Under the pieces are notes generated by a model. It was not told the origin of the DNA. It was given only the letters and a program-made list of their open reading frames with translations, and ran no database searches. Shown piece after piece: positions 3,538 to 60,316 of a stretch of DNA of 64,000 nt. Both the position numbers and the translations under genes were made by a program. The DNA comes from Helicobacter pylori (GTDB taxonomy: Bacteria; Campylobacterota; Campylobacteria; Campylobacterales; Helicobacteraceae): assembly GCA_008032935.1 (NCBI GenBank), contig CP032039.1:1116001-1180000 (forward strand), given 5' to 3'. Positions within the stretch are counted from its first letter, which is position 1. The number at the start of each line of letters is the position of its first letter.

Positions 3538-3935
3538 GGGCGCGTTTAGACGAATTAGACAAAGTGGCGGCTGCAATTTTAAAAGATGATTTTAAGGGGG
3601 TGGTGCTTTTAAAGGGCGTTGTGGGGAGCGGTAAAACGACCTTAGTTCAAGCGTGCTTGAAACACTTGGGGTTAGACATTCAAGCGACTTCACCCACCTT
3701 TAGCTTGATGCATGCTTATAGCGAGAGCGTGTTCCACTATGATTTTTACATGCGCGATTTAGAGGCTTGCTTGGAGCTTGGCATGTTGGAGTGCTTGTTA
3801 GAAAAGGGGATCCATTTTGTGGAATGGGGCGATGAAAAATTAGAAAAAATTTTAAAAAAATACGATTTAGCTATTAAGGTTGTGGAAATCAAAACCGAAC
3901 CAACCAGCCGTTTTTATACGATAAAGATCGCTTAA
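3534..3935 (+). CDS. tsaE: tRNA threonylcarbamoyladenosine biosynthesis ATPase TsaE
   Basis: A 133-residue P-loop protein, the usual size for TsaE. Walker A GVVGSGKTT is at 28-36, 'SPTFSLMHAY' follows, then 'HYDFYMRD' and 'FVEWGDE', all characteristic of the family. TsaE works with TsaB and TsaD to make the t6A modification at position 37 of ANN-decoding tRNAs. The ATG overlaps the dnaX stop and lptB begins 12 bp downstream, so it sits in a compact four-gene run ending in rpoN. Confidence 0.93.
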   Translation: MRARLDELDKVAAAILKDDFKGVVLLKGVVGSGKTTLVQACLKHLGLDIQATSPTFSLMHAYSESVFHYDFYMRDLEACLELGMLECLLEKGIHFVEWGDEKLEKILKKYDLAIKVVEIKTEPTSRFYTIKIA

Positions 3936-3947
3936 AGGGTCGCTTGA

Positions 3948-4670
3948 ATGGATGTTTTAAAAGCAGAGCATTTAAACAAACAGATTAAAAAAACCAAAAT
4001 CGTTTCAGACGTTTCTTTAGAAGTGAAGAGCGGCGAAGTAGTGGGGCTTTTAGGGCCTAATGGGGCGGGTAAAACCACCACCTTTTACATGATATGCGGG
4101 CTTTTAGAGCCTAGTGGGGGGAGCGTTTATTTAAATGATGTCAATTTAGCTAAATACCCTTTACACAAGCGTTCTAACTTAGGCATAGGCTACTTGCCCC
4201 AAGAATCCAGCATTTTTAAAGAATTGAGCGTGGAAGAGAATCTAGCCCTAGCAGGGGAGAGCACTTTTAAAAACTCTAAAGAGAGCGAAGAAAAAATGGA
4301 AAGCTTGTTGGACGCTTTTAATATCCAAGCCATAAGAGAGCGCAAGGGCATGAGCTTGAGTGGGGGAGAAAGAAGGCGCGTAGAAATCGCTAGAGCTTTA
4401 ATGAAAAACCCTAAATTCGTGCTATTAGATGAGCCTTTTGCGGGCGTGGATCCGATTGCGGTGATTGACATTCAAAAAATCATTGAAAGCCTGATTGGAT
4501 TAAACATCGGCGTGTTGATCACTGATCACAATGTGCGAGAGACTTTGAGCGTGTGCCACAGGGCGTATGTGATTAAAAGCGGCACGCTTTTAGCGAGCGG
4601 GAACGCTAATGAAATTTATGAAAACGCTTTGGTGCGTAAGTATTATTTAGGGGAAAATTTTAAGGTATAG
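3948..4670 (+). CDS. lptB: LPS export ABC transporter ATP-binding protein LptB
   Basis: A 240-residue ABC ATPase. Walker [10 protein letters not shown] is at 36-44, the Q-loop near residue 85, the signature [15 protein letters not shown] at about 137-151, Walker [13 protein letters not shown] at about 158-169 and the switch histidine H194. The order and the '[11 protein letters not shown]' segment are typical of LptB (YhbG), which powers lipopolysaccharide extraction from the inner membrane with LptF/LptG. It lies two bases upstream of rpoN, the lptB-rpoN order found in many proteobacteria, which supports the call. Confidence 0.93.
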
Positions 4671-7329: not shown

Positions 7330-9314
7330 TTAGAATATCCACCCATAATTGAAAAACACCTTAAAATGGCTAGCCCCTTCATTGAAAACAAAAGAGTTCG
7401 TGTAATCGCCACCGCTAGAAACGACGCTAGCTTTTCTTTGGATTAAAGGGATGCTAATCCCTACAGAATATTTAGAATGCTTATAGCGGTAATTCAACCC
7501 AGTAGCCACATCTAAATTGCCACTTCCTTTGACTTTATTGAGCACATAATAGCTGTTATACAAGCCCCTTAACCCCCCAAAGATGCCAAAAGATGAAGAA
7601 AAGTTCTTTCTCGTTTGAACGCCTATAGGGCTATTTTTATTGGAGTAAGTGGTGATGAAATCCAGTAATAAATCTATCCCCCACCATAGCTCAATTGCTG
7701 GAATTTTTGATTAAGGGCTTTAGAATAGTTGTATTTCACGATGCCATAATAAGCTAACCCTATGAAATCATTAAAGTAGTTTTGATAGCCTATTTTAGCG
7801 TTAACCCCTAAAATAGGGCTTCTAAAACTCTGTGAAGCGCTTGAAAAATAGTGGTTGGTAACGCTAGAAGTGACAAAGGTTTTTTGAATGGTGCTAAGCA
7901 TGGAATTGGCTAAATCTTGCGTGTTCAAACTAGCGTTTAGATTGTAGTTTGTTTGACTCCCCAAGTTAGCGTAGTTAATCGGTAAAGCGTTTTGATTAAT
8001 AAGCTGCTGCCAGACCGCTGCTGTTACCCCTAAAAAGCCAGCTGGGACATCCGCGCAATTGTGATAGATGGAATTAGGGTAGTTGCTAGGGAAAGCGGGC
8101 TGATTGGATTTTCCATAAAGCGAACACACATTATAGGGGAGGCCATCAGAATCTTTTGGTTTGCCATTTTCGTTTTGACCGGTTGGCACTCTTTGATAGG
8201 TCATATTCCCGTTATGCCCATAGCCTTTAGTGTGGCTGAATTCATGCAAGATGGTTCTTAAATCAGCCAAATTGATAGTCTTAAGGTTGTCGCTAAAGAG
8301 TTTTTGGGGTTCTAATGCATAAGCTTCTACCCCTAATGTGCCATATTCACCATCATTACCATATCCATTGGCTAACCCTACAACCCCTGAATTTTTTAAA
8401 ACAACCGCATCAATTTCTATTTTTTTTCTAAAATTATTAATAATACCTTGTTTGTTGAGTATATATTGTTGATCGACTTTAGAATCAACACGCCCATTTA
8501 CTCCGGGATTTACGCATTTTGAAGAATCATTATCGCAATCTGTTGAGCTGTTAGTGAATTCAAAAGGAGCGTTTAAGATCGCATCGCCCCAAGATTGGGA
8601 GTCTAAGACAGCGATCATGTTCAACATTAAATTAGTGAATTCTTCTGCGGTTTGTGGGGTGAAATTTTGCCAACAATCATTTTTCGTATTACCATTATTA
8701 TTGTAAGGACAAGTGTTGAAATTGCTTGGATTTTCATTACTATATTTCATTATAAGATTTGTTTTAATGTTATTGAGCGTTTCAAACACCCTTTGCGTGT
8801 TAGCGTCAGAAATAGAAGTGCTAGTGGCTTCAAATTTTGGAAGAAAGAAAGTATAGGGGCCAATTTTATCAAACGCCTCTTTTAGGCTATCAAATGCCTC
8901 CCCAGGTAAAACAATCTTAGAGTGTTTGGGGATGGTCTCTATCACGCCTAGATCAATCGTGTTGCCTTGAGCGTCTTTAAAACTCAGTTTAACATTGCTT
9001 AAATTATAAGGTAAGAAATTTTCTATAGTTAATTTACCACCAATATACAACACTTTAACAGGAGATAAAGATGAAAAGTTTAATTGTGATATGGATTTAG
9101 CGTCTGTGAATAAATTAGCCGCTCTTTTTAAAATCGTGTCTGTGGGTAAATAACTATAAGTTGCGTAAGTGTTTTTTGTGGTGGTGTGTCTTTTTTCTTG
9201 CGTTTGCGTGCCTTCTAATAGCCCAGTTTCAAAGCCGGCTTCTATGAAAAAGCCATTTTTCTCGTTCGCTTCTAAAGCGCTGAATAATAAAAGTGGGATG
9301 AATAGTTTTTTCAT
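7330..9314 (-). pseudogene. homA: hom family outer membrane protein, frameshifted near the 3' end
   Basis: The first frame runs from ATG 9314 for 546 residues to a stop at 7674; the second carries the C-terminus to 7330. One extra G in the G5 tract at 7678-7682 (minus strand) joins them into a 661-residue protein, the expected HomA/HomB size. It has a signal peptide (MKKLFIPLLLFSALEANEKN), Asn-rich extracellular loops with cysteine pairs, and a beta-barrel C-terminus ending in Phe (NYGWIF). Residues 357-367 read HEFSHTKGYGH, a metzincin-like HExxHxxGxxH. The locus next to the HD-domain gene is the usual homA position, but homA and homB are hard to separate by eye. As read, the truncated protein lacks its last beta strands and would not insert normally. 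Confidence 0.85.
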
Positions 9315-55466: not shown

Positions 55467-58400
55467 TCACTCAAACCTCTTTTCGCTGATCTTTTCTATC
55501 AAATCCACGCTTTTTTCAGAAAGTTTGATGACCCTACAAAGGAGCTCAAAAACATATTTGCCGCCGGCGTAATCGTTCGGGTTGTTTTCAATCAAGCTGT
55601 CTTTATCCTTAGTCTTTTTATAGCGTTCGATCACCCAGTCAATCGCGCTTTTGCCATTCAGTGCATAGTCAAAGGCTTTTTGTGGGATCTTAGTGATAGC
55701 GATATGGTCGTTATAATGGATGCGATCCCCTTTTTTGGCCATTGTTTCCACATCATAATAACCCTCTTGTTCTGCGTTCATTAGTGTGGTGTATTTAACG
55801 CTTGTGTGCATTTCCCCATTCTCATAGTTCAAATGCAACTCTCCTAATTCTTTGCCAAGCACAGAAAGTTCTTTAAAATCCTCGCTCAAAGCGACGCGCG
55901 GCGCTTCTTTAGCGAGGGAATTTTAGCGAGGGAATTTTTGTATTTTTCCAAGTAGCCTTTATGGTGGAAAATCGCATAAATGTAGTAAAAAATCTCTTCT
56001 TCAGTAATAGCATTATCTTTATAATGCCTCCTAAAGAGATTGAGCGCATAGCCGCTGATAGCGTTATAGCGATTCCCCAGATCGTCGTAATAATACAAGG
56101 GATAAGTTTGATTGGGTGAAATCAAACTAAAATCAGAAATACAATCGCTTACAAGAACGCTAAAATCCTTACCATTTCCCACACCAGTATTAATCACCAC
56201 ATTGCGTGCGCTTTTGTCCGGGAAAATTTTTGGCAATTGGTATTGTCTGTGTATCCAATCCTTATCCCAATAAAGCCATTGTTTGTTAAAAGGGCGATAT
56301 AGGGCTAATCGCATGCGATCTTTATGGCTTTCTTGCAGATTTTTATTTTTAATGAGATTGTTTTTCAAATCATCAGTCCAAGCGATTTTCGTTTTATCGG
56401 TGGTGATTTCTTGGTTGTTGAGTTGCTTATAAAGATCGGCTGATTTGACGCCTTTGGCGCGTTGTTTGAAAGCTTCCCTGAAATGTGCATTAAAGCGCTT
56501 CAAATCAGCGTTATAAGTGTCAATGCATTTTTGCACCGAATGCATTAAAGCGTTTGGAGAAAAACTATACACCCAAGGATCACGCCCGCTTACCACCCCA
56601 TTAGAATTGAGATCAAAAATAGTATCAAATATTTTGAGTTTTGGGTCTCTTTTTAAAGGGATGAGTTTTTCAAATTCTTCATTCCTTTGGTTGATCCAAT
56701 CGCCTTTATTATTCGGGGTGATTTCCTTAAAAGGCACAGATTCCAAATTTTCAAAATTTGCGAGTAAGTTGAGTTTGGCTTCTCTTTTCAAGTAATCTTC
56801 CACTTCATAGTAAAAAATCGTATTATTGGGAACGCTCTTATCTTTCACAAAAAAGATAACCGCTACCGTCGCCCTGGATCCGCTATCAAAGATTTTCCCT
56901 CCCTCTTTTCTTGACACTTCTCCCGAAGTGCGCTGATTCCCCCTCAAATTCAATACATAAAGATGCGCAAATTCTTGTGCCACGCATTTTCTGAATCCGT
57001 CCGCGCTTTTAGAGTCAATAAAACTCCCGTTCACCACAAAGCCTAGCACCCCCCTATCTTTAAGAAGTTCGCTTGCCATATAGATGCTTTGAATGAGCGT
57101 GTCTCGTGTGGTTTTCCCCACTTTGGCGGTGGAATTTTTGCCGTATTTTTCATAAACCCTTTTTTCAAGCTTAGGGTGTGAAAGGTTTTGGTTGTTATCG
57201 TTTTCGCTTTTAGCACCGGCTGAATAAGGCGGGTTGCCTATGATGACTCTAATGTTTTGTTTTTCTATGGTGGATTTGATTTCTTTGTTTTCTTTCAAAT
57301 CCTCAAAGAATTTAAATACCCCCTTAGCGCTTTTTTCTTCCAAATAATCCAAGCTGTCCGTGAGCGCAATATTTTTGAAATTTTTTAACGAGCCATCCCT
57401 ACTTTGCGCGGCTTGGGTGATATTGATTAAAGCGATATAATAAGACAAAAGCACGATGTCAAAAGCGAATAAATGGTTTAAAAACTTCTCTTTTAAGGCT
57501 TCGTCGCTAATGAGCGCGTTTTCTTTAGAAAGCAAACGAGCGATAAAACTCCCGGTTCCGGTGAAGGGATCAAAAATCGTGATGTTTTTATCGTTAAAAT
57601 CCGTATTGAAATGCTTTTTCAAAATGCCGTCAGTGGCTCTTAAAATGAAATCCACCACCTCTATAGGCGTATAAACGATCCCTAGTTTTTCGCTTTGCTT
57701 TCTAAAGGCTTCTTTAAAGAAAGTGTTGTAGAGGTTTTTAATGAGTTCTTGTTGGCTTTTTTGGCTTTTGGCACGCGTGGCTTCGGTTTTCACGCTTTCA
57801 TAGAGGTTTTTAAGACCTTTAGTTTCTCCTTGTAATCCCAAAGTGGAGAGTTTTTCTACCATTTTATCCAGCGCTTTAGAGATAGGGTTTTTGATATTGT
57901 CCCCAAAAATTGCATCAAAAATAGGCTTAGTGATGATGTGAGAGGTGATCATGTCTAAGGCTTCATCTTCTTTGATGCTTTGGTGGATATTGCTTCTTAA
58001 GGAATCCAAAAAGCCGTGGAAAATTTCAGGGTTTTTTTCAAAAATATCTTTCAAGCGATGATTCAAGGTTCTTGCGATATTGCCCGTTTTTTTGGCGAAA
58101 TTTTCCCAATAGTTCCTGTCCCCTAATTTAGTGGGCATGACATTATACACAGCGTTTGCTAGATCTTGCAATAAGATAGCGTCAAAAAGGGTTTTTTGGG
58201 CTTGTTTGGGATCTTGCTTTGTTTTATCTTTTTTTGGCTCTTCATCGCTTTGATTTGTTTCATCATTGTCATTGTCATCGCTTCCAAAGATTTTGATTTT
58301 TTCTCTAAAAGTGGCTTCATCAACCAGGCTTGGGTCATGGCTTCTTAAGGCTTTTATCACTTTCCAAATGTTTTTGAAATTGGTGTTATTGACGGCTTCA

Positions 58401-60316
58401 TCCAGGTTTTCAATTTCACTCTCTTCTAAAGCGATAGGCAAAATGATATAGCCTCTTTTCTTGTGTTTGGCTTTTCGCATCACCCTACCCACCGCTTGGA
58501 TAATATCCACCATAGCGCTTTTGCCATCAAAAAAGACAATGCTATCTAATGCCGGGACATCCACCCCTTCGCTCAAACACCTAGCGTTACTTAAAACCTT
58601 GCAAGTGTTAGGTTTGAATTCATTGAGTTCTTCTAATTTTTCAAGCCTAACCTTACAATTCATGGTGCCATCAATGTGATCGATGCTGATTGTTAGGTTT
58701 TTAAAACTCTTTTTCTTCAATTCTTCATTGTAGCATTCCATAATCGTTTCAAAGGATTCTTTAATACGCTTGCTCGTGTCAATGCTTTTACAAAAGCTTA
58801 TGGCTCTTTGAGAGGGAGTGGTGTCGTTTTTGTTTTGCAAGTCGTAATCTTTTTTGTTTTCATCATCTAAAGCGATTAAATCCTGCTTGGCTAACCCTTT
58901 ATGAGTGCCGATAATCTTACAAACAAATTCGTTATTGATGAGCTTTTTATCCAATTTAGTGCCTTCGGCTTCAAGCTTACTGATCTTTTTATTCACGCTG
59001 TTAGTAACGCCACTTAAATTTTCTTTTCGCACCGCTAAAATCATGACTTTGTAGTCTGTGAGAAGATCTGAAGCGATCGCTCTTTCAAAATTGAGCGTAT
59101 AGATTTCTTCGCCAAAAATCTCTGCATCGTCCATAGAATAGATGGCATTATCGCTCTCTTTGGCTTTAGCTTTAGAGCTTTCGCTATAAACTTTAGGCGT
59201 GGCGGTCATATAAAGGCGTTTTTTCGCTTTGATATGTTCATCGCTATGACAAAGCGTGAAAGCGTTTTTATCATCCCTTTCATTACTAGAATACATAGCC
59301 CCTACCGTTCTGTGGGCTTCATCGCAAATGATGAGATCAATTTTGCCCAAACCCACTTCTTGCGCTTCTTGGATACGCAACGCGCTTTGATAGGTTGAAA
59401 AGATGATGAAGCGCTTGTTTTCTTTTTGAGCTTTTTGATGAACGCTTAAAATGTCTTCAAGGCGAGTGGAGGGCTTTAAGGGGAGCTCAGAAAAATTAAT
59501 ATCATCGGTGTCATCATCGTTTTTATTTTTCTTACCTTTCCCGACTTTATCATCGCTGCACACGATAGAAGCGTAAAAAGGCTCGCTTTTTTCTTGCGCG
59601 TATTCTCTAAAAGTTTGAGAAAGCAAAGCGATGCTTGGCGCTAAAAAAAGCGTGATTTTGGGATTTAAAGCTTCCATGATTTTTAAAGAAGTGTAGGTTT
59701 TGCCTGTCCCGCATGCCATAATGAGCTTGCCTCTAGTGTTTTTAGGGTCAGAAAAATACTCTTTGGTGGCTTTTATCGCTTCTATTTGGTGAGGGCGTGG
59801 CTTTTTCTTATCGCATAAGGGGAGTTCGCCTTGAGTTTGCATAGGATCAAACTTTTCCCAATCAATCTGAGAATGGATAAAATCCTCTTCAGTGATTTCA
59901 ACAATATCAATCCCTTTGCTTCTTCTGATTTGCTCAATTTCGTTAAGAGCGGCTGAGGTTAAATTAGAAGTGGAGATGATGATCCCTTTTTTAAACCCAA
60001 CCTCTTTTACCCCGCTTTGCAATTTGGATAAAAAAGTTGAAAGGTCGTTCAATGAGACGCTGTCTTGATGGAATTTGCATTGCACGGCGATGTATTCTTT
60101 TGAAGTCGTTGTGATCACCATATCAATCCCACGATCGCCTTCATTCCCCCTTAATTCCCAATCGCTCCAAAGCTCAATAGTCTCGTATTCGTTAGCACTG
60201 TCATGCTCTATTAAAAAACGCCTAGAAACTTTTTCAAACCAACTCCCTTTAAGGCGAAGGTTGGGTATGGCTTGCAATTTTTCTTTGATGAGTTTGAAGG
60301 TGTTGATTTCTGACAT
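55467..60316 (-). pseudogene. type ISP restriction-modification enzyme, broken by a 14-bp tandem duplication
   Basis: The main frame (ATG 60316, AAGGA upstream) gives 1476 residues: N-terminal PD-(D/E)xK nuclease (D65, Q79-C80-K81), helicase with Walker A ACGTGKT near 201 and DEAH, then an adenine-N6 methylase with FDPFTGTGSF and NPPY. It stops at 55886. A second frame continues for 140 residues to 55467. TAGCGAGGGAATTT is present twice in tandem at 55910-55937; removing one copy restores '..LAKEAPRVALSEDFKELS' and a 1611-residue enzyme. The lost tail belongs to the target-recognition end of this family ('LPRIP...LAELHLNYE'-like), so the product as read is probably not functional. Recognition site unknown. 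Confidence 0.9.
55910..55937. repeat. 14-bp perfect tandem duplication in the ISP gene
   Basis: Two exact adjacent copies of TAGCGAGGGAATTT. The unit length is not a multiple of three, so copy number sets the frame: one copy on, two copies off, four copies on again. Confidence 0.95.

What the first reader, a model, noticed from the sequence alone, without database searches (positions are those of the whole stretch)
55886..55937. Type ISP restriction gene switched by copy number of a 14-bp tandem unit
Two exact adjacent copies of TAGCGAGGGAATTT sit exactly where the 1476-residue frame ends and the 140-residue C-terminal frame begins. Removing one copy gives a continuous 1611-residue enzyme. 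The lost region carries the conserved tail of the recognition end. A 14-bp unit is not a multiple of three, so slippage between copies could turn the enzyme on and off, a longer unit than the mono- and dinucleotide tracts usual in H. pylori phase variation.
Basis: partly seen in the sequence, partly recalled or inferred. Interest (0 to 1): 0.78.

Follow-up and report, generated by a model that had tools for sequence, protein, structure and literature searches.

The report
Private 14-bp duplication breaking restriction gene
A 14-letter stretch copied once by accident breaks the end of a DNA-defence enzyme gene in this Helicobacter strain; almost every related genome has the same gene broken at some other place, so this looks like ordinary gene breakage that could in principle revert, not a purpose-built on/off switch.

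Summary
Two exact adjacent copies of TAGCGAGGGAATTT (55910-55937) shift the frame of a Type ISP restriction-modification gene (minus strand, 55467-60316). The product stops at 1476 residues, about two thirds of the way through its specificity domain.

The "switch" reading is not supported as an evolved mechanism. All 13 genus relatives that carry the site have one copy, where only a commonplace 3-bp AAA microhomology is present. Yet 12 of those 13 are broken too, at other places: mostly 1-nt indels outside long tracts, plus deletions and a replaced 3' end. Flanking genes are almost always intact.

This matches the literature. H. pylori 26695 has two frameshifts in this gene "not due to sequence repeats" and J99 has one (PMC3936762). 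H. pylori pseudogene frameshifts from 2-106 bp tandem repeats, mostly not phase variation, are already described (PMC3046158).

Codon constraint (dN/dS about 0.26, not clearly raised downstream of the duplication) suggests the lesion is young. Loss of one copy is plausible, as for pneumococcal cap3A duplications, but was not shown. A canonical repeat switch would look like the G10 and G12 tracts at the frame breaks of two distant Helicobacteraceae orthologues.

The parts
55910..55923 (-). copy of the 14-bp unit (TAGCGAGGGAATTT on +)
55924..55937 (-). second exact copy of the 14-bp unit; the relatives have only one copy at this place
55886..60316 (-). truncated Type ISP restriction-modification protein, 1476 aa, premature stop TGA at 55886-55888
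   Evidence: Pfam domains; LlaGI and LlaBIII matches
55467..55889 (-). out-of-frame remainder (140 codons) encoding the C-terminal third of the specificity domain; its TTG 'start' is the conserved Leu codon of the one-copy orthologues
59834..60196 (-). Mrr-type nuclease domain (aa 41-161)
   Evidence: PF13156
58472..59806 (-). ResIII and Helicase_C motor (aa 171-615)
57758..58111 (-). ISP coupler domain (aa 736-853)
   Evidence: PF22240
56972..57478 (-). Eco57I-type N6-adenine methylase domain (aa 947-1115)
55922..56620 (-). N-terminal two thirds of the Type ISP specificity domain (aa 1233-1465)
   Evidence: PF18135

Best explanation
A private (seen in this genome only), recent 14-bp tandem duplication. 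It probably arose by slipped-strand mispairing over a 3-bp AAA/AAA microhomology, inside the 3' part of the gastric-Helicobacter Type ISP gene (the HP0667-HP0669 / M.HpyAXVIII locus). It adds 14 nt (-1 mod 3), so translation ends 7 codons after the array's second copy and the C-terminal third of the target-recognition domain is lost. This very likely abolishes methylation and restriction together, because both use that domain in one polypeptide. It is one of many independent lesions in a gene that is recurrently broken across the lineage. It is not a dedicated copy-number switch, although one copy could be lost at low frequency. Shown: duplication, frameshift, one copy in all relatives, recurrent private lesions elsewhere, codon constraint. 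Inferred: microhomology mechanism, loss of activity, reversibility.
For: One copy in 13 of 13 genus relatives with the site. In the one-copy state only AAA matches at 14-bp spacing (array length 31 = 2x14+3), and the intact orthologue has over 1,000 3-bp and over 400 longer microhomology pairs at frame-shifting distances of 8-40 bp, so the site is not special. 12 of 13 relatives are broken by other lesions at other sites, with only G002 open for 1587 aa. Among flanking gene instances (glpC, hemN, OMP) in the same 10-kb stretches only one, glpC of G015, is broken; ISP against glpC, Fisher p = 3e-5. dN/dS downstream of the duplication is 0.265 against 0.235 among the others, so there is no sign of long decay. 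Literature: 26695 has two frameshifts not due to repeats and J99 one (PMC3936762). H. pylori B38 pseudogenes include frameshifts from 2-106 bp tandem repeats, 11 of 59 fragmented genes are R-M genes, and the paper says most such frameshifts are not phase variation (PMC3046158).
Against: Only one genome per species-level cluster is available, so copy-number variation among close strains or within this strain's population could not be seen. A perfect 14-bp tandem pair is reversible in principle, and the absence of further lesions in this gene is also what a recently switched-off gene would show.
Confidence: 0.85

Rival explanations
1. The 14-bp pair is a working phase-variation switch: one copy ON, two copies OFF, flipping by slippage within the population.
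For: Exact adjacent copies, a unit that is not a multiple of three, single-polypeptide R-M so OFF is safe, codon constraint preserved downstream. Spontaneous, reversible in-gene duplications cause high-frequency capsule phase variation in pneumococcus cap3A, cap8E and tts (Waite 2001 and 2003, as cited in PMC4243769).
Against: No copy-number polymorphism in 13 relatives; switching OFF from one copy would rest on 3-bp microhomology that is commonplace in the gene; relatives are OFF through unrelated lesions.
Confidence: 0.08
2. The second copy is an assembly or sequencing artefact and the gene is intact.
For: The contig is an unfinished long-read type assembly: its first 12.8 kb recur at the end with 0 mismatches but 86 gaps, and the last about 4.3 kb are an inverted copy.
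Against: Those errors are small indels at contig ends. The locus lies 1.17 Mb in, the rest of this 4.8-kb gene and its neighbours have no 1-nt frame errors, and a perfect 14-bp insertion is not a typical read error.
Confidence: 0.05
3. The two ORFs are both translated (TTGA start/stop overlap at 55886-55889) and the fragments reassemble into an active split enzyme.
For: The stop TGA and a TTG codon overlap.
Against: The TTG is just the conserved Leu codon in one-copy relatives. No Shine-Dalgarno-like sequence stands at the usual spacing (read by eye). The split lies inside a single domain.
Confidence: 0.02

Closest known systems
H. pylori Type ISP system HP0667-HP0668-HP0669 / M.HpyAXVIII (26695) and JHP0612-JHP0613 (J99)
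   Same: Same kind of system, in the same place judging by gene order (HP numbering of the neighbours from my own knowledge), and also broken by frameshifts (PMC3936762).
   Different: Their frameshifts are described as not due to sequence repeats (26695) or as one authentic frameshift (J99); here it is a 14-bp tandem duplication near the 3' end.
Pseudogenes of H. pylori B38 caused by short tandem repeat indels of 2-106 bp (PMC3046158)
   Same: Frameshift by a short tandem repeat in a pylori-lineage genome; R-M genes are prominent among those pseudogenes, and most of the frameshifts are judged not phase variable.
   Different: A different strain; which genes carry the tandem-repeat frameshifts is in a supplementary table that I did not read.
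Pneumococcal cap3A / cap8E / tts reversible in-ORF tandem duplications (Waite 2001, 2003)
   Same: In-gene tandem duplication that inactivates and can be lost precisely.
   Different: There reversion was observed; here no variation has been observed. A capsule gene, not an R-M gene. The primary papers were not held; known here through PMC4243769.
LlaGI (5FFJ) and LlaBIII (4XQK) Type ISP enzymes
   Same: Full-length homologues (phmmer E below 1e-226), same domain order; the lost tail aligns with LlaBIII 1447-1573.
   Different: Those are the well-characterised active enzymes (own knowledge); the window allele is truncated.

Membership tests
Type ISP restriction-modification enzyme | single polypeptide with nuclease, helicase motor, coupler, N6-adenine MTase and specificity domain | tested here: met
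   Pfam PF13156, PF04851, PF00271, PF22240, PF07669, PF18135 in order; the last domain is truncated by the frameshift
Type ISP restriction-modification enzyme | sequence-specific methylation and restriction activity | not testable with these tools
   needs SMRT methylome or purified enzyme; the 26695 relative methylates GGANNAG when expressed in E. coli (PMC3936762)
Simple-sequence contingency locus (slipped-strand phase variation) | a repeat tract conserved in place across strains with varying copy number | tested here: not met
   one copy in 13 of 13 relatives; only species-level representatives, not sibling strains, could be examined
Simple-sequence contingency locus (slipped-strand phase variation) | frame changes with unit copy number (unit not a multiple of 3) | tested here: met
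   14 mod 3 = 2; frames read
Simple-sequence contingency locus (slipped-strand phase variation) | observed reversible switching within a clonal population | not testable with these tools
   no reads or sibling isolates available
Reversible in-ORF tandem duplication (cap3A type) | private duplication with precise reversion at measurable frequency | tested here: inconclusive
   duplication is private among the genomes held; reversion not observable here

The most novel reading that the evidence does not exclude
The gastric-Helicobacter Type ISP gene is a locus whose OFF state is reached by random lesions anywhere in its 4.8 kb and whose ON state is restored by uptake of intact alleles through natural transformation. 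That would keep it under codon constraint although almost every genome sampled carries a broken copy; the 14-bp duplication would be one of these interchangeable OFF alleles, with the added option of self-reversion.
Probability: 0.15. Interest if true: 0.5.

Novelty: new member of a known kind. Interest (0 to 1): 0.2.

Why it matters
It mainly prevents a false claim: a perfect tandem pair at a frame break invites a phase-variation story, but comparison shows one ordinary lesion among many in a frequently broken gene. The side result is of moderate interest for R-M evolution in naturally transformable bacteria: 13 of 14 species-level genomes (this one included) carry this gene broken, at different sites, yet it keeps codon constraint.

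Tried and rejected
DNA folding of the site gave no hairpin that would promote slippage (z 0.1 and 0.7). By eye, -1 frameshifting before the second copy meets a TAA and no canonical slippery heptamer is present, so translational rescue was not pursued (frames). A hotspot of lesions around aa 1434-1492 (G000, G015, G033, G003, G007) was tested by a scan statistic: p from 0.005 to 0.23 depending on lesion choice and window width, so not claimed. The '-5' indel first reported for G003 was an alignment artefact; a multiple alignment shows +1 T plus an in-frame 6-bp difference. Three other 'frame change' tandem arrays with a period that is not a multiple of three (8319, its end-repeat 1636657, and 1070160) are at gene ends, not frame-breaking duplications. 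Genome contigs gave no named pylori-lineage orthologue. Aras 2003 is not held.

Full report
Observation. The minus-strand gene at 55467-60316 is interrupted by two exact adjacent copies of a 14-bp unit (55910-55937). The 14-mer occurs nowhere else in the genome. The upstream frame is open for 1476 codons and ends at 55886; the remaining 140 codons are open in another frame. The Pfam domains are, in order, Mrr nuclease, ResIII/Helicase_C, ISP coupler, Eco57I methylase and Type ISP specificity domain, with the specificity domain cut at profile position 215 and resumed at 227 in the other frame. PDB homologues are LlaGI and LlaBIII, whose C-terminal residues align with the out-of-frame tail.

Is it chance? 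Exact tandem arrays with period of 13 or more number 43 in the whole genome against 0-1 in Markov simulations. Inside ORFs the long periods are nearly all multiples of three. So the pair is a true duplication event, and frame-shifting ones inside genes are rare in this genome. In the one-copy state the unit is flanked only by AAA/AAA at 14-bp spacing. Microhomologies of 3 bp or more at frame-shifting distances number about 1,500 in the intact orthologue, so nothing marks this site as prepared for duplication.

Relatives. All 34 held genomes of the genus were searched. Thirteen relatives contain the duplicated region, and all have one copy. Only G002 has an intact gene (1587 aa). The others are broken elsewhere: G016 -1 at aa 453; G031 -1 at aa 473; G005 -1 at aa 574; G019 +1 at aa 611; G032 -1 at aa 1057; G024 a 148-bp deletion at aa 304; G022 three 1-nt indels; G015 a nonsense codon at 315 and -1 at aa 1470; G033 -1 at aa 1477; G003 +1 near aa 1490; G007 3' end replaced; G028 a large internal deletion. 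No homopolymer longer than 8 occurs in any of these genes. Flanking genes in the same stretches are intact except glpC in G015, so assembly error does not explain the pattern as a whole.

Selection. Median dN/dS is about 0.26 in the N-terminal part and 0.265 after the duplication for this genome, against 0.235 there among the others. The lesions are therefore young relative to the divergence of these genomes. Recurrent loss, possibly balanced by re-acquisition of intact alleles by transformation, is the simplest reading (inference).

Contrast with real switches. Two distant Helicobacteraceae orthologues carry G10 (L041:5551-5560) and about G12 (L042, near 9240) tracts exactly where the frame breaks. 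That is what a canonical contingency tract looks like in this gene family. The ISP-coupler genes found in other families of the order lie in frames of about 720-1600 codons, mostly about 1000 or more; whether each is full-length was not checked.

Literature. Krebes et al. 2013 (PMC3936762) describe the Type ISP locus HP0667-0669 with two frameshifts not due to repeats in 26695, motif GGANNAG when expressed in E. coli, and one authentic frameshift in J99. PMC3046158 reports H. pylori B38 pseudogenes produced by tandem repeats of 2-106 bp among other indels, with R-M genes prominent, and states that most frameshifts are not phase-variable genes. Reversible in-ORF duplications are known from pneumococcal capsule genes (cited in PMC4243769). 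So the kind of event, the gene and its tendency to be broken are all known; I found no earlier record of this particular duplication.

Limits. No reads, sibling isolates or named strains were available, only one genome per species-level cluster. Reversion and activity are therefore untested. The assembly has messy ends, but the locus is interior and its neighbourhood is clean.

Noticed in passing
L041:5551-5560 (G034) and L042 near 9237-9248 (CANQAN010000006.1): Type ISP orthologues outside the pylori lineage carry G10 and about G12 tracts at their frame breaks, in the specificity and methylase regions: likely genuine phase-variable Type ISP genes.
   Followed up: partly
G000 contig ends: 1-12823 against 1628290-1641130, and about 1641128-1645412: The assembly is not circularised: the start recurs at the end with 0 mismatches but 86 gaps, and the last about 4.3 kb are an inverted copy, so real genome length is about 1.628 Mb and the end sequence is unreliable.
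   Followed up: partly
L028-L040 (orthologues of the ISP gene): Twelve of 13 relatives carry this gene broken by different private lesions while dN/dS stays near 0.26: recurrent young loss of an otherwise constrained gene.
   Followed up: yes
L036 (G024) and L037 (G005), gene region around nt 3900-4100: Strong local divergence in the specificity domain, suggesting allele swaps that would change the recognised motif.
   Followed up: no
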